A stretch of 64,000 nucleotides of DNA from Dialister hominis (GTDB lineage: Bacteria; Bacillota; Negativicutes; Veillonellales; Dialisteraceae). The stretch is taken from positions 2,020,001 to 2,084,000 of the forward strand of contig NZ_AP019697.1 in assembly GCF_007164725.1 (NCBI RefSeq), in the 5' to 3' direction. Every line of letters begins with the position of its first letter. Position 1 is the first letter of the stretch. The translations under genes and the position numbers were made by a program. This document shows, one piece after another, positions 4,329-23,457 of the stretch. Below the pieces are notes generated by a model. That model made no database searches. It was not told the DNA's origin and saw nothing but the letters and a program-made list of their open reading frames with translations.

Positions 4329-5558
4329 ATGAATAAGACACTGGATGAGATGAAGATGATCCATGAGGAGGAGATGCAGAGTTACGGGCGGATCCAGGAT
4401 CGGGTGATTTCGGTGATGCTGTCTCATGGTTGCAAGATTGTGCAGACGCCAAGTTTTGAGGATTATGACTCTTACGGGACGTATTTTCCGTCGCTGCGCA
4501 AGGAGATGATCAAGACGATCGATTCGGACGGGTCGGTGCTGGTGCTTCGGCCGGATGTGACGCTGCCTCTGGTGAAGGCGGCGGCGATTGAGTTTCCGGA
4601 CGGGTCGGAGCTTTTGAAGTACGGGTACGTGACGACGGTGTTCCGCAATTATTATGGCATGACGTCGCATGGCAGGGATTTCCTGCAGGCAGGTGTCGAG
4701 GTGCTGGGGGATCCTACGCCGGAGTGTGACGGGGAAGTGATTGTCACGGCGGCGGAGTTCCTGGAGTCGGTGGGCATCGAAAGCATGCGGATCGACCTTG
4801 GCACGGTGGCTTACATGGATGCGCTTTTCGAGGCGCTGGAGCTTTCAGAACGGCAGGCGGATGAGCTTCGTTCGTGCATGGAGAAGAGAAATCTGGTTTC
4901 CTTTAGGGAAATCGCAGAGTCCCTCCCCCTTTCTGGCAAGCGGCGCACGGCGCTTTTGGAGCTGCCTTCGCTTTTCGGGCCGTACGGGCCGACGATGTCG
5001 CGGGCGCGTTCGCTCTGTCTGAACGGGCAGATGGATCAGGCGCTCGACCGGATCAGCCGGGTGTATGAGTATCTGGCCAGTGCGGGATATGAGAAGCTCG
5101 CGCACCAGGACTTCGGGTTTGCTTCGCACATGGGATATTATTCGGACCTCGTCTTCCGCATTTACGTCGACGATGCGCTCTATTCGCTCGTGAGCGGCGG
5201 ACGTTATGACAAACTTTCCGAGCAGTTCGGCCCGGCGCGTCCGGCCTGTGGGTTCGGGATGAATATGAATCTCCTCTACGAGTACATGACGGACTCAGGG
5301 CTTCTCGATGAGGAAGGACCTTCCTTCCAGCTGGCGGTTTCCTACGACCGCTTCTCGAAGAACCTCGCCGCCGACCTCACGCGCTGGAGGAAGAAGGGGT
5401 ACCGCGTGATGGGGTACCGTCTAGGAAATACAGTCGATCCTTCCGATTACGCCGCCATGGCCGTGTACCGGGACGGATCGTATGAAACGGGCGGGGAAAT
5501 CCTCTCGCCGGATGAAATGGAAAAGAAACTGGAGGCGATGAAATCATGCTGCACATAG
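4329..5558 (+). CDS. hisZ: ATP phosphoribosyltransferase regulatory subunit HisZ
   Basis: 409 residues. HisZ is a catalytically inactive relative of histidyl-tRNA synthetase that joins short-form HisG to make a histidine-sensitive ATP phosphoribosyltransferase. The sequence shows class II synthetase-like motifs: VLRPDVTLPLVKAAA near the N-terminus, YYGMTSHGRDFLQAGVEV (motif 2 area), and SGGRYDKLSEQFG with GFGMNMN in the C-terminal part. It is the first gene of the his operon and overlaps hisG by 13 bases. The presence of hisZ agrees with the short HisG that follows. The ATG follows a weak GGGGCGG ribosome site. Confidence 0.93.
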   Translation: MNKTLDEMKMIHEEEMQSYGRIQDRVISVMLSHGCKIVQTPSFEDYDSYGTYFPSLRKEMIKTIDSDGSVLVLRPDVTLPLVKAAAIEFPDGSELLKYGYVTTVFRNYYGMTSHGRDFLQAGVEVLGDPTPECDGEVIVTAAEFLESVGIESMRIDLGTVAYMDALFEALELSERQADELRSCMEKRNLVSFREIAESLPLSGKRRTALLELPSLFGPYGPTMSRARSLCLNGQMDQALDRISRVYEYLASAGYEKLAHQDFGFASHMGYYSDLVFRIYVDDALYSLVSGGRYDKLSEQFGPARPACGFGMNMNLLYEYMTDSGLLDEEGPSFQLAVSYDRFSKNLAADLTRWRKKGYRVMGYRLGNTVDPSDYAAMAVYRDGSYETGGEILSPDEMEKKLEAMKSCCT

Positions 5559-12782: not shown

Positions 12783-12828
12783 AAAAAGCCCATGACGAAA
12801 TATTTGTTCATTCCGTCATGGGCTTTTT
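12783..12828 (-). terminator. Terminator, probably of the McrBC-like operon, displaced by an IS
   Basis: AAAAAGCCCATGACG and CGTCATGGGCTTTTT form a 15-bp perfect stem. The minus-strand T-run suits leftward transcription. Without the ISL3 element it would lie about 45 bp after the stop codon of the leftward gene ending at 14326. The insertion has separated the two by 1.46 kb. Confidence 0.7.
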
Positions 12829-12831
12829 CTT

Positions 12832-14295
12832 GGTTCTTCACGCTTTTTTGTGGGATAAAAATAATAACATATAAAATTGGCATTGAAAAAAGAGCATTAT
12901 CTACTCCGAAATGTAAGTTGCCTAAAACTACGCACGGAGGTCGAATAATGCTCTTTTATTACTATAATGAAATCACTTTTAATTGTCAATATTATCGCAC
13001 AGAAAATATCACTAACCATCCAAATCCTCATTGCCATACCCGAGTTACCAGTTTACGGACTGCCAGAGATTTTTCCTGTCTGCACTGTCACTCCCGTATG
13101 TATAGTTATGGGGCTTTTTCTGTACTCATCAAGGATTTTCCAGATCTTCCTAAGCAAAAGAAGTATATAGGGTTCTCGGGGCACAGATTCCGCTGCACAT
13201 CCTGCGGGGAGACCATAACGGAAGATATCCCCTGCCAATGCCCTTTCACACGCGTTACTTGGGATATGGCCTTGTGGATTATCCATCTGCTTAAGTGTCA
13301 TACATCCATTTCTGCCATTTCGGCCATGCTCTCTGTACATTGGAGTGCCATACAGAAAATACAAAAGCATATCATGGATAAGGCGTTGGCTGCCTTTGAA
13401 ACCTGCCTGAAGAAAAGTAACTATCGCCCACGGTATTTGGCCGTAGATGAGTTCGCTATCCATAAGGGCCATCGCTATGCCACCTGCGTTATGGATTTGG
13501 AAACGGGATTCATCTTGTGGGCCGGCCTGGGTCGCTCCATGGCAGATTTTGAGCACTTCTTTAAGAGCATTGACCTTTCGCTTCTTTCCAGGCTAAAAGT
13601 GGTGGCCATGGATATGAACGCATCCTTTAACAGGCTGTTCCAGAAATATTGTCCGAAGGTCCCCATCGTTTATGACCGGTACCATATGCAGGCACAGTTT
13701 GGGCGTGATGTTATGGGAGCCGTGCGCCTGGAGGAAGCACAAAAGCATAGGCAGGAAGCAGAAGCATTAAAGGAATATACGAAAGAAACTAATAATCCAG
13801 AGCTCCAGAAGATGGCCAGGGAAAAGAGCCATGAAGAAAGGAAGCTTTATACCGAATTAAAGAAATCCCGATGGATACTGTTAAAGAAGGACGACCACCT
13901 GAATGAAAGGCAGAAAACTCATCTGTTGGATATCCTGAGCGAGCATAGGGATTTGGCGATTTGTTATGCCATGAAGCAGGAGATGACTCGTCTGTTCACA
14001 TTGACTGACTATGAAGAAGCTCTCGCCGGATGGACAAAATGGATTCAGGCTGGACTGGAGAGCGGGATTCCTGCCCTGGTAAAGTTTGCCCGGCAAAAGC
14101 AGAAGCGAATCAAGGGACTGGCTGCTCATGCCCTGTATCCTATCAATACGGGGAAGCTTGAAGGATTCAATAATAAGATCAAGGTACTAAAAAGAATCGG
14201 ATATGGGTACCGAAACATAGATTATTTCTTTACCCTTATCCGATTCCATTCTTTACCTAAAAATTATTCATCCCCCAAATTTCCGTGAAGAGCCT
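12832..14295 (+). mobile_element. ISL3-family insertion sequence
   Basis: The left end, GGTTCTTCACGCTTTTTTG, and the complement of the right end, GGCTCTTCACGGAAATTTG, are imperfect inverted repeats starting with the GGCTCTTC type typical of ISL3. CTTTTTCTT is repeated at 12823-12831 and 14296-14304, an 8-9 bp target duplication given the T-rich context. The end may be one base to either side. Confidence 0.85.
12948..14288 (+). CDS. ISL3-family transposase
   Basis: 446 residues from the ATG at 12948, which has GGAGG seven bases before it; longer upstream frames lie outside the element's logical start. The N-terminal zinc-binding part has CLHCHSRMY and FRCTSCGETITED; an HTH region follows (HTSISAISAMLSVHWSAIQ). 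The DDE core shows RYLAVDEFAIHKG, KVVAMDMNASF and KLEGFNNKIKVLKR with YGYRNIDYFFTLIRF. The gene appears intact. Confidence 0.93.
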   Translation: MLFYYYNEITFNCQYYRTENITNHPNPHCHTRVTSLRTARDFSCLHCHSRMYSYGAFSVLIKDFPDLPKQKKYIGFSGHRFRCTSCGETITEDIPCQCPFTRVTWDMALWIIHLLKCHTSISAISAMLSVHWSAIQKIQKHIMDKALAAFETCLKKSNYRPRYLAVDEFAIHKGHRYATCVMDLETGFILWAGLGRSMADFEHFFKSIDLSLLSRLKVVAMDMNASFNRLFQKYCPKVPIVYDRYHMQAQFGRDVMGAVRLEEAQKHRQEAEALKEYTKETNNPELQKMAREKSHEERKLYTELKKSRWILLKKDDHLNERQKTHLLDILSEHRDLAICYAMKQEMTRLFTLTDYEEALAGWTKWIQAGLESGIPALVKFARQKQKRIKGLAAHALYPINTGKLEGFNNKIKVLKRIGYGYRNIDYFFTLIRFHSLPKNYSSPKFP

Positions 14296-14325: not shown

Positions 14326-16062
14326 CTATATCGACTCTATATATTTCTCCAGCAGATCCGGGAGTTCTTCGTTGCCTGGGAGGCCCGGGGCAAGGGGTAT
14401 GAACCGCAGGCTGTAGTCTGCGTCGCTTCTTCCGGGGATTTCTTTGGGGAAGACGGCCCAGACTTCTTTGACGGGGCGGCTGTCTCTGAGAGAGGCAGCT
14501 TCTGTCATATCGCGGTAGAAGCGGGTGTTCATGTCTCGGTAGGCGTTGAATTGTTTCCTGATGCTGTAGCTTCTGTTTTCGTCCTGCCAGAGGAAGAGGA
14601 CGTCTCTGTATTTGAAGTCGGCTACGAGGGAGCCGTAGTAGAGGCCTTCTTTGTAGTAGTCCATCCTAAGGTCCGGCTGCCTGTGGGAGTTGTTGGTGTA
14701 GAGGGGCGCTTTGTCGCGGCTGGTGTCGGCGGAGTTTCCGGGGACGATGCCGTCGTAGACGAGGCGGATTTCTGCGTTTTCCCGTTTCAGGCGGATTTCT
14801 GTGCCGGATTCAAGGCTGGCAAGGCGGTACTTGCCTTCTTCTTTGAGGACCTCGACGCCGTCTTCGAGTTCCCATCCTTTGGCCATGAGGGCTTTGATGA
14901 AGCGGAGGAAGCCCCACATTTCATAGAGCTTATCGGTCCTTTTCCACTGGAACTGGTAGAAGGAGGAAACGTCAAGGCTCGAGAACGGGTTCTCAAGGTT
15001 TTTGTAGAGGCGGTAGAGGACGGAGTATCTGGGGTCGCGGAAGACGGCCATGGGCATGGTTTCGGGCATTTCGCCTTTTGTTTCTTCATACCATGGCGCA
15101 AGCGTAACGCGGCGGATGCTCTGCCTGAGGAGTGTCGCGCGTTTCCTGTAGTCGATGAACTGCGAGAGGGCTTTGACGCCCATGCGGTATTCACGATCGC
15201 GGGAGAAGCGGGCGATTTCGCGCTGGCGGTCTTCGAGGCGTTCTACGTGGCCGTCGATTTCCTTGATGAAGGTGAAGAGATTCTGGTCGAGTTTCATGAG
15301 GAGCGCTTTAGCGAAGCGGTTCTCTGCGACGTCCCATGTCATTTCCGTGTAGAGGGCGGGCGTCGTCGGTGCGCCGGCTCTGTCGTGGAAGTGCTGGGGC
15401 CGGATGTGCGGCTCGGTACGCCTGTCGCCCAGCGTCCTCACATGCTTCATGCGAAGAGCCAGTCGCGAATTGGCCGTGCGGGCGAGTTCGTCCAGTACGT
15501 TCAGCACCACGGGCGATTCGTCGCGGATGGTGTAGAAGCGGAGCAGCATTTCCGTATTGACGCCAAGCGCCCCTTCGAGCTGTCTGGAAATATGGATATT
15601 GCGCTTCATGAAATCGAAGGAGAGCGTCTTGATTTCCTCGACGAGCTCATCCCTCATTTCCTGCCAGCTCTGCTTTTCCATGTAGCGCGGATTGATTTCG
15701 AGGATCCCGTACCACGCGCGGCCTGCGCCTTCGACGGTCATAACGTAGTAGCCCGGGACGAGCGGGAAGTCCTGCCCGGCAAAGAGGAGGATGTCCTTCT
15801 TCCCTTCGGGGAGGATGTACGTCTGCTCGGATTCCCTCTCCTGCCCCGGAAGCGTCACGATGTCGAGGCCGTCCATGGTGAAGCGGAAGCCCGCAGGCGC
15901 TTCGAAGCGGAGGAATATATCCTGATTCTCCGTCAGGGCAAGGGCGGCAGGGAAATGGCCCGTCAGCCGGTCAGGGTCTATCGTGAAGCGCGTGGCGGAA
16001 ATGATCCCTTCCTTCTTTGTCTCAAACGTGAGGGAGAATGGCAGTTTAGATCGTGTAATCAT
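14326..16062 (-). CDS. McrC-like DUF2357 protein with PD-(D/E)XK nuclease domain
   Basis: 578 residues. The N-terminal two thirds resembles DUF2357 proteins (IEINPRYMEKQSWQEMRDEL region). The C-terminal part has the nuclease pattern PDLRMDYY, then VADFKYRDVLF, giving the expected Asp and the D-x-K pair. DUF2357 nucleases are usually coupled with McrB-like AAA+ proteins in type IV restriction systems that cut modified DNA. It overlaps the upstream McrB-like gene by 17 bases, so both are probably one transcript. Cleavage specificity cannot be told from the sequence. Confidence 0.8.
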   Translation of the reverse strand: MITRSKLPFSLTFETKKEGIISATRFTIDPDRLTGHFPAALALTENQDIFLRFEAPAGFRFTMDGLDIVTLPGQERESEQTYILPEGKKDILLFAGQDFPLVPGYYVMTVEGAGRAWYGILEINPRYMEKQSWQEMRDELVEEIKTLSFDFMKRNIHISRQLEGALGVNTEMLLRFYTIRDESPVVLNVLDELARTANSRLALRMKHVRTLGDRRTEPHIRPQHFHDRAGAPTTPALYTEMTWDVAENRFAKALLMKLDQNLFTFIKEIDGHVERLEDRQREIARFSRDREYRMGVKALSQFIDYRKRATLLRQSIRRVTLAPWYEETKGEMPETMPMAVFRDPRYSVLYRLYKNLENPFSSLDVSSFYQFQWKRTDKLYEMWGFLRFIKALMAKGWELEDGVEVLKEEGKYRLASLESGTEIRLKRENAEIRLVYDGIVPGNSADTSRDKAPLYTNNSHRQPDLRMDYYKEGLYYGSLVADFKYRDVLFLWQDENRSYSIRKQFNAYRDMNTRFYRDMTEAASLRDSRPVKEVWAVFPKEIPGRSDADYSLRFIPLAPGLPGNEELPDLLEKYIESI

Positions 16063-18634
16063 AGAGCTTCAGCTCCCCGGCTTTGATCTTCAGCACACGC
16101 TTCGACTCTTCGAAATTCGAAAGGTCGGAGAATTTCTCAAGAACGGCAGGAACTGTGCCCTTGAGCTCGCCCTTGTCGTTCAGCGAAAGGAGTATCGAAA
16201 GCTGCTGGGAAGAGCCGCGGAGCTTCGTCAGGATGCGCTGGACGACCTGGGAGTCGATGCCTTCCTTCCTCGAGAAGCCGAAGCCTTCGGGGATGTTCTC
16301 CAGGTACCTTCCCATCTGGCGTGCCACGCGGAAGCCGATGCCGCACTGGATGCCGCTGTCGTGGAAGGCATCATTCAGCGCATCGAGGAGATTGAGCTCG
16401 CGTTCAGTGAGCCCCAAGCCTCCGCGGACGCGGAATGTACTGAACATCTTCGCGCCGATTTCATCATAGCGGGCTCTCTTCCGTCTTTTGAGGCCCATGA
16501 GGTCCCTGAAGCGGCCCTGATGGAGCGTGATGACGTTCGCGCGGTCGAGAATCTTGTCGGAGAAATGGTACGTCGATTCATCGACATTGACCGTGCCCGT
16601 GAAAATGACGTTCGAACCGACAGTGATGTCTGCCGGGTAGCGGTCACCATTGTAGAGGCGCGGTGCGAGCGACGGATTGTAGAGACGGATGACCGGATTT
16701 CCTTCCTTCTCGAGCGCGGAAATGAATTGCGCGAAATAATGCTCAGCGCGGGCGAGGTTCATTTCATCGAAGCACACGATGTAGAGCTTGTCCGTATGCT
16801 GCGAAGCATCGATCAGAAGCTCGGCAAGGCCCGTGTCGGCGCTCCTGTAGACGAGATTCTTCATGTCGACATAGCCCAGGATATCGCCGTCGTCCATCCA
16901 GGACGGGCGGACAGGGAGGAAACAGATCCTCTCTTCCGGGATCCCGAGTGCTTTGCCGTAGAGGCGGACGAGGCCGGACTTGCCCGTGCCGCTCATGCCT
17001 GCCAGGATGACGAGCCTGGAGGATTTGACGGAAATATGGAAATTGATGAGATCCTTCTGGTTATAGAGAAGGCCGGCGCGGCTGGCGGTGTCCGTCAGGC
17101 GGTCGATGAAATCCTTCTCCGTGAAAGCGGGCGCTTCGTCCCTCTTCCCGTTCTTTCCCTTCGTTTCCTTGGCCGTCGTTTCCTGCTTCGGTGCTTCCTT
17201 CACGTCCTTGGGTGCTTCTTTTGCGGCATCTTTGGCCGTTTCCCTGGGAGCCTCTTTCGGCGCTTCCTTGGCGATTTCCTTCACCTCTTTGGCAGCAGGC
17301 GCTTCCAGTTCCTTCACCGGACCCTTTCCTGCTTCCAGAAGCGGTGCTTCCTTTACCTCGCGGCGGTTCTTGTTATTTTCCTTTTCCTTTGTTTCGTTCT
17401 TGTTCTTATCACTGCGGCGGGTGCTGGCAGCAACTTCTGCCTTCATGACCTTCTGCGCCTCAGCCTTCACCTCTGCCTTTGGTTTTGGATCAGCCTTCGG
17501 TGCGTCCTTCGCCGGTGCTTCCTGACGGGGCGCTTCTTTCCTGCCCCTTCCCTCGTTGGCGCGGCGCGGCTTCTCGGCATCCTTCAGGACCTCATCGGCC
17601 TTGAACTCTGCCTTCAGCTTCTTGCCCTCCTGCGCTTCCGGCATCTTCTCAAGCGGCTTCTTCCCCTTGAGATTCATCTTCCGGATCACATCGAGCACAC
17701 CCTCGCCCGTTTCCTCATCCCGCTTGCCATTCAGCAGCTGGAAAAAATCGTCCTTCGTCACGAAATTTCCCTCTGACATGCCGAAAGGATTCACCTCGAC
17801 ACCGCTGTCCTTCAGGATATCCTCATCCTCAGGCACCGGACGGAGATCGCGGCGAAGATCAGGGAGAAATTCTTCTGGAACAAACCAGAGCGGACTTTCC
17901 TCACAGCGCAGAATATGCGAAAGGATTTCCGAATTATTGACATCGACAAGGCCATAACCCAAAGGGCCGTGATTTCTTACACGGAAATACGCCCCGCCCT
18001 CGCCGATCACCATCGAATCGAAAGCATCATCATGAAGCGGAGCGAAGACAACCCACGGCCCCAGCTTCCCCTCGAGATTTTTCGTCGCTGCTACAACCAA
18101 CTGCGGACGGACGTCATTATTCCAGTTCCGCTTCGAAAGCCCCGGAAGCGGCTTCCCTGACATGATATGATGGCAGAACTTGTTGATATCCCCGCCGAAA
18201 ACAGGCTGGTCGATCGTCCCGAAAGCTGGCACTGGATAATAATTCTTATCCACATCCATGAAAGGCGTCCGCCCTTCCTTCGTCATGTCGTCCAGGACAA
18301 AAAACTTATTACTCCGAAGAGCCGGCGTAAACGTCACAAAAGAGTCCCCATACTCCTCCATCAGTTTCGCGAGCGCCTGCTCCTCCGTCTGAAATGAATT
18401 GAAGCCGAAACCAATCCGGCTCATAAAACCAGTGAACCCGAACTTCTCCGCCTCCTCGAAGCCCTTTGGCAGCGGTGAAACCGGGTCAACAAAAAACCGG
18501 TAATCCTTCATCCCCGCCTGCGGTGCCGATTCCTTTACGATCGCACGCACACGGCCGAGCACCTTGCCATCAGCCTGTCTGAGGGAAAGATGAAGATTAT
18601 CCGGGCTTGGAAAAAGCGCGTTATAATTCGCCAT
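16046..18634 (-). CDS. McrB-like AAA+ ATPase with charged low-complexity linker
   Basis: 862 residues from the ATG at 18634, chosen because of a GGAAGG ribosome site before it. The N-terminal part (about 1-280) is an unknown domain that could recognise DNA. Residues about 350-510 are a long linker very rich in Lys, Glu and Ala with repeats such as EAPKEAPRETAKDAAKEAPK. The C-terminal third is a McrB-type AAA+ module: Walker A GMSGTGKSGLV, Walker B LYIVCFDEMNLARAEHYF, and sensor TGTVNVDESTYHFSDKILDR. It partners with the downstream McrC-like nuclease as a translocating NTPase. The linker is unusual for McrB and makes the protein long. Confidence 0.82.
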   Translation of the reverse strand: MANYNALFPSPDNLHLSLRQADGKVLGRVRAIVKESAPQAGMKDYRFFVDPVSPLPKGFEEAEKFGFTGFMSRIGFGFNSFQTEEQALAKLMEEYGDSFVTFTPALRSNKFFVLDDMTKEGRTPFMDVDKNYYPVPAFGTIDQPVFGGDINKFCHHIMSGKPLPGLSKRNWNNDVRPQLVVAATKNLEGKLGPWVVFAPLHDDAFDSMVIGEGGAYFRVRNHGPLGYGLVDVNNSEILSHILRCEESPLWFVPEEFLPDLRRDLRPVPEDEDILKDSGVEVNPFGMSEGNFVTKDDFFQLLNGKRDEETGEGVLDVIRKMNLKGKKPLEKMPEAQEGKKLKAEFKADEVLKDAEKPRRANEGRGRKEAPRQEAPAKDAPKADPKPKAEVKAEAQKVMKAEVAASTRRSDKNKNETKEKENNKNRREVKEAPLLEAGKGPVKELEAPAAKEVKEIAKEAPKEAPRETAKDAAKEAPKDVKEAPKQETTAKETKGKNGKRDEAPAFTEKDFIDRLTDTASRAGLLYNQKDLINFHISVKSSRLVILAGMSGTGKSGLVRLYGKALGIPEERICFLPVRPSWMDDGDILGYVDMKNLVYRSADTGLAELLIDASQHTDKLYIVCFDEMNLARAEHYFAQFISALEKEGNPVIRLYNPSLAPRLYNGDRYPADITVGSNVIFTGTVNVDESTYHFSDKILDRANVITLHQGRFRDLMGLKRRKRARYDEIGAKMFSTFRVRGGLGLTERELNLLDALNDAFHDSGIQCGIGFRVARQMGRYLENIPEGFGFSRKEGIDSQVVQRILTKLRGSSQQLSILLSLNDKGELKGTVPAVLEKFSDLSNFEESKRVLKIKAGELKLYDYTI

Positions 18635-18879
18635 ATGAATTTTCCTTCCTTTACTTAAATACGCACGAAACCGACACGTTTCGTACTTTGCGGGCCAAGC
18701 CCTCATTTATTCACGGCAGCAGGGACCGCGAAATCCCCGCCTTCGACACTGCCACCCAGTGCCGCCGCGTCTCCCCAAAGGGAATGTATACAGAATTCCA
18801 AACCTTTTTAGAATTCTGTTATTATTTTAGCATAATTGAATACGGTTGACTAATAATAAAGAAGAATGGGGAAACGAAA

Positions 18880-21470: not shown

Positions 21471-21547
21471 TTTAAGGGTGTTAACCTTGCTCCGAAAGGA
21501 GAAGGTGTCAGCGTAGCTGACGGATACAGTAGTTATCGAGCAAAGCG
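21471..21547 (+). repeat. Three-hairpin repeat, type Y, running into a tandem array
   Basis: TTTAAGGGTGTTA, hairpin 1 CCTTGCTCC-GAAA-GGAGAAGG, hairpin 2 GTCAGC-GTA-GCTGAC, GGATACAGTAGTT, hairpin 3 TCGAGCAAAGCGAGG. The usual TTGTATGG end is replaced by the AGGTTTTG array. Confidence 0.8.
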
Positions 21548-21674
21548 AGGTTTTGAGGTTTTGAGGTTTTGAGGTTTTGAGGTTTTGAGGTTTTGAGGTT
21601 TTGAGGTTTTGAGGTTTTGAGGTTTTGAGGTTTTGAGGTTTTGAGGTTTTGAGGTTTTGAGGTTTTGAGGTTTT
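21548..21674 (+). repeat. Tandem array, 8-bp unit AGGTTTTG, about 16 copies
   Basis: 127 bp of perfect 8-bp repeats. The minus-strand reading frame through it (NLKTSKPQ units) is a by-product of the repeat and not a protein. The array starts exactly at the 3' hairpin of a type Y repeat, whose normal tail is G/T-rich, so slippage in that tail may have produced it. Confidence 0.95.
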
Positions 21675-21879: not shown

Positions 21880-23457
21880 TTAGGCGGCAATCCTTATACG
21901 CATTATTTTTGTGATGTATTTCCTTAAATTATAGCCAAGTGCTACCAGGTATAACTCGGCTTTTACAGAATCTATCCCTTTTCTGACGATTCTTTTGTAC
22001 CATCTGTCATGTTTCATGATTCCAAAAGTTCCTTCAGCCTGGATTGACCGGTTCATTCTTAGCAGGGCTCCATGGATGCTTTCCAGATTATCCTGAACCT
22101 CCTGGTACATGTTATTCCGTTCTCTGCTCAATGAGATTCTTTTGTTCTTCGGGGTCTTTTTACATTGCTCTGCCAGCGGGCATCCTTGGCAGTCTTCGCA
22201 TTCAAATACTTCCTCCTGCCTGCCGTATAAGTTCCCTCTGACCAGATGTCTATAGATAAATTTGAAAGCCCTGTCATTTGGACAACGGATGGTTCCATTC
22301 TCATCAACTCTAAAGTTTATTGGCCGAAACGGATTGGTATGGTATTTCTTGTCTTTCGTTTCTTTCTTGTACATGGGGAATTTCATATACTTTTCCATAC
22401 CGTGCTGCTCGCAATAGATGTAATTGTTGAAAGATCCATATCCTGCATCTGCCACAGGATACTTAGGATAAGCCCCATAGACTTCGTGGAATTCCTCCAT
22501 CAGCGGTACGAAGCAATCCATATCTGAACGATACTGGTTAACATCAATTACGGCAATAAATTCATCGGCAACACCTATTTGGACATTGTATGCAGGCAGA
22601 AGCTGATCATTTCCCATGTAGTCCGACTTGATTCGCATGAATGTTGCATCCGTATCGGTCTTCGAATAACTGTTTCTGGAAGTACCGCATATCTGTATCT
22701 TCTCAACATATTCTTCAAGTTTTGATGTATATGCCTTAAGCTGCTCATACTTGCGTTGATGATCGGACTTGCGATGCCCGCTTCCATGAACAAAGGCCGT
22801 CTCATCAATCTGCCAGATTTCTTTTAATTTATCCAATACCAGACGCAGATAGTCCGGAGCGTATTCTGTATTGATGTTTACACTCATATGGTCATACTTA
22901 AGATCATCATTGAGTAACTCAAAAAGGCTGGTAATCTTGGCAAAAAGCTTGTAGCGGGATTTTTCAGCGGATTTCTTCCATACCCAGCTGTATTTATTTG
23001 CGTTCGCTTCAAACTTGGAACCGTCAATATATATATGCTGCAAATCCACGTTGAGTTTGCCGCAGAGTTCTTTCGTAATTGAATAAAAGATATCCTTGAG
23101 AGAATACTTAAGAAAGCCCTTCACGAAATGACAGAATGTCCGATAGGATGGGGCTTCATAATTCATCAGGTACATATATCTGATATTAACCCTGCAATTA
23201 TCTTCAAGTTTTCTAAAAGAGCAATATCCTTCTTCTGCGAAACCATAGATGATCGTTTTCAGCATGTTGACGGGATTATACCTGGGTCTGCCAGCGCCAC
23301 GCGTCGGTATGTAACGAAGGTACTTTTTAAGATCGATTTCCTCCATAAATCTGTCATACATTAAAACAGGATCATCGACATTGAGAATCTCAGAGGGAAA
23401 CATTGGCAAAATGCCTTGTTCTGCGGTAAAATGATTGCTAGTGTTGTTATTTTTCAT
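21880..23457 (-). CDS. IS1182-family transposase
   Basis: 525 residues. The N-terminal part shows MLKTIIYGFAEEGYCSFRKLE and YMYLMNYEAPSYRTFCHFVK. The DDE core has HIYIDGSKFEANANKYSWVWKK, then PVADAGYGSFNNYIYCE and a C-terminal NRSIQAEGTFGIMKHDRWYKR with the Glu. A cysteine cluster, CEDCQGCPLAEQCKK, lies before the last motif, as usual in this family. The gene looks intact. Confidence 0.93.
   Translation of the reverse strand: MKNNNTSNHFTAEQGILPMFPSEILNVDDPVLMYDRFMEEIDLKKYLRYIPTRGAGRPRYNPVNMLKTIIYGFAEEGYCSFRKLEDNCRVNIRYMYLMNYEAPSYRTFCHFVKGFLKYSLKDIFYSITKELCGKLNVDLQHIYIDGSKFEANANKYSWVWKKSAEKSRYKLFAKITSLFELLNDDLKYDHMSVNINTEYAPDYLRLVLDKLKEIWQIDETAFVHGSGHRKSDHQRKYEQLKAYTSKLEEYVEKIQICGTSRNSYSKTDTDATFMRIKSDYMGNDQLLPAYNVQIGVADEFIAVIDVNQYRSDMDCFVPLMEEFHEVYGAYPKYPVADAGYGSFNNYIYCEQHGMEKYMKFPMYKKETKDKKYHTNPFRPINFRVDENGTIRCPNDRAFKFIYRHLVRGNLYGRQEEVFECEDCQGCPLAEQCKKTPKNKRISLSRERNNMYQEVQDNLESIHGALLRMNRSIQAEGTFGIMKHDRWYKRIVRKGIDSVKAELYLVALGYNLRKYITKIMRIRIAA

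What the first reader, a model, noticed from the sequence alone, without database searches (positions are those of the whole stretch)
16046..18634. McrB-like ATPase with a long Lys/Glu/Ala-repeat linker
Between an unknown N-terminal domain and the AAA+ motor lies a stretch of about 160 residues made of units like KEAPKE. Such a linker is not usual in McrB. It may space the recognition domain from the ring, or act as a flexible, charged tether. The N-terminal domain does not look like a known 5-methylcytosine reader.
Basis: partly seen in the sequence, partly recalled or inferred. Interest (0 to 1): 0.5.

Follow-up and report, generated by a model that had tools for sequence, protein, structure and literature searches.

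The report
CnuA-less Type I-B CoCoNuT, long linker
This bacterial gene pair looks like a known but untested kind of GTP-driven nucleic-acid defence machine; in this bacterial family it seems universal, lacks a usual partner protein, and in this species joins its recognition head to its motor by an unusually long, floppy, charged tether.

Summary
The linker is real: residues 345-505 of an 862-aa McrB-like protein (16046-18634, minus) are 63% K/E/A/P, without heptad pattern. The whole linker is 235 aa, against 51-132 in ten family relatives and 27-74 in four CnuA-bearing Bacillota relatives.

The N-terminal region is not an unknown reader: predicted folds are a cold-shock/OB domain (18-126) and an EVE/YTH-like domain (126-285; all seven best VIA matches are EVE or YTH, Z 4.3-5.9, next 2.4; Foldseek alone not significant). 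The motor has the NxD motif; the partner (14326-16062) is McrC-type. Their 17-nt overlap is kept in 29 of 29 related loci and 0 of 5 other NxD loci. This is the CnuB-CnuC core of a Type I-B CoCoNuT (Bell 2024).

Two differences: CnuA is undetected in 12 of 12 family genomes, though seen in 11 of 12 other phylum relatives; and the pair is in 12 of 12 family genomes against one weak match in 49 others of the order, amid non-defence genes. Most likely a vertically kept, CnuA-less variant with a disordered tether.

The parts
16046..18634 (-). cnuB-like gene: CSD/OB + EVE/YTH-like + linker + NxD-type McrB GTPase (862 aa)
18257..18583 (-). residues 18-126: cold-shock/OB-like domain
   Evidence: AlphaFold2 model pLDDT 84.7; best VIA match YB1 cold-shock domain 5yts, Z 6.1, 70 residues, rmsd 3.1
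17780..18259 (-). residues 126-285: EVE/YTH-like domain
   Evidence: own model pLDDT 87.6, pTM 0.84; all seven top VIA matches are EVE (1wmm, 2hd9, 2p5d) or YTH (7yxe, 4u8t, 8bs5, 7yx6) structures, next row Z 2.4
17126..17830 (-). inter-domain linker, residues 269-503 (235 aa); K/E/A/P-rich core residues 345-505 (17120-17602)
16049..17125 (-). McrB-like AAA+ GTPase domain, residues 504-862
16976..16999 (-). Walker A GMSGTGKS
16580..16588 (-). NxD signature (N683-V-D685, in TVNVDESTY)
   Evidence: motif defined in PMC11090510
14326..16062 (-). cnuC/mcrC-like gene: about 120-residue N-terminal part, DUF2357, PD-(D/E)xK nuclease (578 aa)
14443..14931 (-). PD-(D/E)xK (PDDEXK_7) domain with intact PD...DxK
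   Evidence: E 1.1e-6; catalytic pattern kept in 10 of 10 aligned homologues
16046..16062 (-). 17-nt cnuB/cnuC overlap, ATG at position -16 of the cnuB stop
   Evidence: 29 of 29 related loci, 0 of 5 other NxD loci
18665..18684 (.). ACGAAA-N8-TTTCGT dyad in the cnuB leader (operator or RNA hairpin, untested)
18790..18819 (.). ACAGAATTC-N12-GAATTCTGT palindrome next to a promoter-like site (18852-18824, minus)

Best explanation
[quoted passage not shown] Inferred mechanism: the CSD and EVE/YTH-like head of CnuB samples nucleic acid (single-stranded or RNA by the CSD, a modified base by the YTH-like fold); the NxD GTPase assembles a ring; CnuC binds it, stimulates GTP hydrolysis and cuts with its PD-(D/E)xK domain. 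The linker is a disordered polyampholyte tether that lets the heads reach a target away from the ring. Its length and composition vary widely, so it is likely a spacer rather than a specific binding site. Shown: gene architecture, motifs, predicted folds, overlap, phyletic pattern, linker variation. Inferred: nucleic-acid target, nuclease activity, defence role, tether function.
For: N-x-D motif in all 12 family members, as defined for the branch (PMC11090510 section 7). CSD + YTH-like order before the GTPase with no coiled coil in CnuB is what PMC11090510 section 8 gives for Type I-B; predicted here. The N-terminal region is homologous to that of four complete CnuA-CnuB-CnuC operons plus one truncated locus in Bacillota: hhalign probability 95.6, E 1e-8 over 205 columns (operons read, CnuA aligned). 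The family's GTPases form one clade (98/100) inside the Type I-B-like group, apart from the 5 outgroup NxD sequences (100/100), and follow genus. 17-nt overlap in 29 of 29 loci and 0 of 5 outgroups. DUF2357 and PDDEXK_7 above Pfam cut-offs, catalytic pattern kept. CnuA model: 0 of 12 family genomes, 2 of 2 independent genomes with the N-domain. Linker core: 14 Pro, 9% ILVMFWY, no heptad periodicity (p 0.095), while the four CnuA coils have 23-31% and 0 of 1000 shuffles as high.
Against: Foldseek found no PDB match at E <= 0.001 for either model; the fold assignments rest on VIA Z of 4.3-6.1, which is modest, and a sequence profile of the YTH-like part found no EVE/YTH chain in the PDB. The Ig-like domain of CnuC was not modelled. 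The CnuA model missed the CnuA-like gene in three of the 12 phylum relatives and was weak in a fourth, so a very divergent CnuA elsewhere in the genome is not excluded. PADLOC has the GTPase only under an undescribed candidate (PDC-M26A, E 1.2e-39) and nothing for the CnuC. No defence genes were seen around the loci that I read, which is unusual for a defence system. No NxD GTPase had been characterised when PMC11090510 was written.
Confidence: 0.78

Rival explanations
1. Canonical modification-dependent DNA restriction (McrBC proper): the YTH-like head reads methylated DNA, as TgMcrB reads 6mA, and the complex translocates and cuts DNA; the NxD change and CSD are minor variations.
For: Intact PD-(D/E)xK motif; YTH-like fold, the fold that reads 6mA-DNA in TgMcrB (PMC7680126 passages); two-gene operon.
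Against: NxD instead of NxxD in all members; CSD-like domain with best match to an RNA-bound cold-shock domain; clade shared with CnuA-bearing operons.
Confidence: 0.3
2. The long linker replaces the lost CnuA: it is a helical (single alpha-helix or coiled-coil) spacer doing mechanically what the CnuA coil does in trans.
For: CnuA is not detected in the family, and linkers in the family (51-235) are on average longer than in four CnuA-bearing relatives (27-74).
Against: 14 prolines, 9% large hydrophobics and no heptad signal; five of six genus members and one of two genus g2 members keep 51-72 aa linkers with no CnuA detected.
Confidence: 0.08
3. The K/E/A expansion is nearly neutral low-complexity growth in a tether under no length control, without function of its own.
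For: Length 51-235 and net charge -17 to +8 among eleven family members; K/E/A-rich linkers in three of four genera on different branches; no simple link to GC content.
Against: The reading frame and strongly polyampholytic, Pro-containing composition are kept; repeated similar solutions may mean selection for solubility or reach.
Confidence: 0.4
4. A house-keeping or stress role (RNA surveillance, or the stress role proposed for Pseudo-Type I-B) rather than anti-phage defence.
For: 12 of 12 family genomes have it; gene tree that follows genus; neighbours read are non-defence genes such as MlaD, arginase family, PPK2, nitroreductase and symporters; CSD-like domain.
Against: Patchy occurrence elsewhere in the phylum (12 of 397 at E <= 5e-58), typical of defence; broken copies in G390 and G361.
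Confidence: 0.25

Closest known systems
Type I-B CoCoNuT (CnuA-CnuB-CnuC), Bell et al. 2024, PMC11090510
   Same: NxD GTPase; CSD + YTH-like head on CnuB without a fused coiled coil; McrC-type DUF2357/PD-(D/E)xK partner; mainly Bacillota; shared 17-nt overlap with CnuA-bearing loci
   Different: CnuA not detected; long K/E/A/P linker; present in every sampled genome of one family; no neighbouring defence genes in the loci read
Pseudo-Type I-B CoCoNuT of Bacillus (same paper)
   Same: Type I-B relative that lost CnuA
   Different: In Bacillus it sits in stress/quorum-type islands, often with a Type I-B copy in the extended neighbourhood; here it is the sole CnuB match in the own genome and sits among ordinary genes; whether the two CnuA losses are one event was not tested
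TgMcrBC (PMC7680126)
   Same: YTH-fold reader, AAA+ GTPase, McrC nuclease
   Different: 7-residue linker; NxxD motor and absence of a CSD are recalled, not read
E. coli McrBC
   Same: McrB-type motor and McrC-type partner, overlapping genes
   Different: DUF3578 5mC reader (PMC7680126 passages); NxxD motif

Membership tests
CoCoNuT / NxD branch of McrBC | NxD instead of NxxD signature | tested here: met
   TVNVDEST in the window; N-x-D in all 12 family members
Type I-B CoCoNuT | CSD-like OB fold at the CnuB N-terminus | tested here: met
   Residues 18-126, top VIA match a cold-shock domain, Z 6.1, many other OB folds; modest scores
Type I-B CoCoNuT | YTH/EVE-like domain between CSD and GTPase | tested here: met
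   Seven of seven top VIA matches are EVE/YTH, Z 4.3-5.9, next 2.4
[quoted passage not shown]
   No heptad signal, 14 Pro in the linker core
Type I-B CoCoNuT | Separate CnuA coiled-coil protein (usual, not invariable) | tested here: not met
   0 of 12 family genomes by model; control 2 of 2; upstream genes and leaders read. Hence the CnuA-less form, not Type I-B in full
Type I-B CoCoNuT | CnuC with DUF2357 and PD-(D/E)xK | tested here: met
   Pfam above cut-offs
Type I-B CoCoNuT | Ig-like N-terminal domain of CnuC | not tested
Type I-A CoCoNuT | Zinc ribbon in CnuC | tested here: not met
   No Cys in P0002; the helical insert of Type I-A CnuB was not tested
Pseudo-Type I-B CoCoNuT | Type I-B relative without CnuA, in Bacillus stress-type islands | tested here: inconclusive
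   CnuA absence met; island genes not seen in the loci read; phylogenetic identity with the Bacillus clade not tested
Canonical McrBC (NxxD) | NxxD signature | tested here: not met
PADLOC PDC-M26 candidate | PDC-M26A and PDC-M26B hits | tested here: inconclusive
   A hit E 1.2e-39, no hit for the partner

The most novel reading that the evidence does not exclude
In this bacterial family a Type I-B CoCoNuT has been turned into a core nucleic-acid surveillance machine: the CnuA partner (with its death-domain-like and receiver modules) was lost in the ancestor, and long polyampholyte tethers evolved repeatedly on CnuB, giving a self-sufficient two-protein sensor-nuclease whose reach or clustering is set by a disordered linker.
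Probability: 0.15. Interest if true: 0.6.

Novelty: new variant of a known kind. Interest (0 to 1): 0.4.

Why it matters
PMC11090510 states that no NxD McrB GTPase has been characterised. A two-gene form without detectable CnuA, whose linker varies naturally from 51 to 235 residues, gives a small test case for which parts are needed, what the CSD + YTH-like head reads, and what CnuA adds. Its presence in all 12 sampled members of one family also raises the question of whether such systems can become permanent cell functions.

Tried and rejected
Pfam, NCBIfam and PDB sequence searches say little about the N-terminal region. Foldseek alone gave no significant match for either model. Viral contigs: 13 pattern stretches, none confirmed as a relative. 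SRA, DUF3578, B3 and winged-helix readers did not appear in the VIA rows shown, which excludes nothing. A DNA-level tandem array as origin of the linker was rejected (varied codons). Coiled coil or heptad helix in the linker was rejected. GC content as the cause of K/E/A linkers: no clean relation (GC per locus, linker data). The CGAAA dyad as a genome-wide regulon: counts equal the reversed-pattern control, 3 and 3 in the own genome. Multiple alignment of six leaders did not bring the dyads into register. Literature: 'PDC-M26' 0 papers; 'Dialister' + 'McrBC' 1 paper, judged unrelated from its listing; 'Dialister' does not occur in the main text of PMC11090510; a further three-term search gave nothing relevant in its listing. 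Linker variation between strains of this species could not be examined.

Rows left out: the tree lacks G092 and G133 (my Walker regular expression missed them) and G390 and G361 (cnuB broken into two frames). G011 is a fragment cut by its contig end, so it has no N-domain or linker row. L028 lacks its upstream part.

Full report
OBSERVATION. The ORF at 16046-18634 (minus) encodes 862 residues. Residues 345-505 are 63% K/E/A/P, against a maximum of 42% in 1090 comparison windows from the 45 longest non-overlapping ORFs. The repeat-like units (KEAP six times) exceed composition shuffles, but are not a DNA tandem array. By my anchors the stretch between the folded head and the motor is 235 residues.

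RELATIVES. The window lies in a complete 2.4 Mb genome with one match to this protein. In the same family 12 of 12 genomes have it (10 of 10 of good quality; four genera); in the order 13 of 61 match, 12 of them this family and one weak (E 4.5e-21). The partner gene is also found in all 12 family loci. In 398 genomes of the phylum, 53 match the GTPase at E <= 1e-20; apart from the own genome, 12 lie at E <= 5e-58, followed by a gap to 8e-42.

LINKER VARIATION. Lengths: window 235; other genus members 51, 52, 69, 70, 72; genus g3 91, 95, 121; genus g2 65, 132; four CnuA-bearing Bacillota relatives 27, 38, 46, 74. The short ones in the genus are acidic (net -5 to -17), the window's is balanced (+4). 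The linker core has 14 Pro, 9% large hydrophobic residues and no 3.5-residue periodicity, unlike the CnuA coils. For comparison TgMcrB has a 7-residue linker (PMC7680126 passages).

N-TERMINAL REGION. VIA-align places 18-126 on OB folds, the best being the RNA-bound YB1 cold-shock domain (Z 6.1), and 131-265 on PH1033 of Pyrococcus (Z 5.1) (that PH1033 and MJECL36 are EVE proteins is recalled). Residues 126-285 modelled alone (pLDDT 87.6) give seven rows of EVE or YTH structures at Z 4.3-5.9 and then a drop to 2.4. Foldseek was not significant. Profile comparison links the region to that of Bacillota relatives (probability 95.6, E 1e-8).

MOTOR AND PARTNER. The motor carries GMSGTGKS and TVNVDEST, the NxD signature that defines one branch of McrBC in PMC11090510 (sections 6-8 read). 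The partner has DUF2357 and PDDEXK_7 above cut-off, the PD...(D/E)xK pattern in 10 of 10 aligned rows, and no cysteine, so no CPxC zinc ribbon. cnuC starts 16 bases before the last base of the cnuB stop codon in 29 of 29 related loci and in 0 of 5 other NxD loci.

CnuA. Four Bacillota relatives with full upstream sequence (L027, L029, L030, L031) have a 303-364 aa coiled-coil gene directly before cnuB, as in Type I-B CoCoNuTs. A profile of these finds 0 of 12 in the family and 2 of 2 in independent genomes. Over the 12 phylum relatives it finds the upstream gene in 8 (one weakly, E 0.0039), and three more have a CnuA-like gene there by position and appearance; G357 has none. The profile is therefore not exhaustive, and absence rests also on reading the genes and leaders upstream in the family loci, which show MlaD-like, PPK2, nitroreductase or no same-strand gene of that kind.

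HISTORY. In a 30-row GTPase tree the 12 family members are one clade (98/100) within the Type I-B-like group, and genera are recovered. This suggests vertical keeping and one loss of CnuA; the root is by midpoint only. Synteny is only partial: an MlaD-like gene lies near cnuB in 4 of 6 genus members (homology group 4).

INTERPRETATION. It works like, and by most tested features is, the CnuB-CnuC core of a Type I-B CoCoNuT without CnuA. Whether it is the Pseudo-Type I-B of Bacillus could not be decided. Target, nuclease activity and defence are inferred; PMC11090510 says that no NxD GTPase has been characterised. The linker is best seen as a disordered tether with loose length control.

Noticed in passing
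window 18665-18684; L032 8020; L033 17175; L034 2663: A (A/G)CGAAA-N-TTTCG(T/C) dyad lies upstream of cnuB in 4 of 6 genus members, once per fetched stretch (expected 0-0.04), although genome-wide counts equal the control. The A-T to G-C change on both arms in L034 hints at a kept dyad or hairpin.
   Followed up: partly
L041 about 4750-4765 (G001:C39); G002:C1:1168913-1168928: The 16-mer TGTTTCACGTGAAACA (parS of ParB, recalled) sits just upstream of cnuB in both genus g2 genomes, each of which has only two such sites.
   Followed up: partly
window 18790-18819: Palindrome ACAGAATTC-N12-GAATTCTGT near a promoter-like site before cnuB; its core pattern (AGAATTC-N-GAATTCT, spacers 9-14) occurs once in the own genome.
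   Followed up: partly
window 21547-21674: Perfect tandem array of GAGGTTTT, 16 copies, between a MerR-type regulator and a transposase; a candidate slippage site.
   Followed up: no
window 12792-14288 and 21880-23457: Two intact-looking transposase genes (ISL3 type; DDE_Tnp_1_6 with DUF772) lie on either side of the operon region.
   Followed up: no
window 16046-16062 and 28 related loci: Invariant 17-nt overlap of cnuB and cnuC over very diverse genomes (28-64% GC), a useful marker of this operon type.
   Followed up: yes
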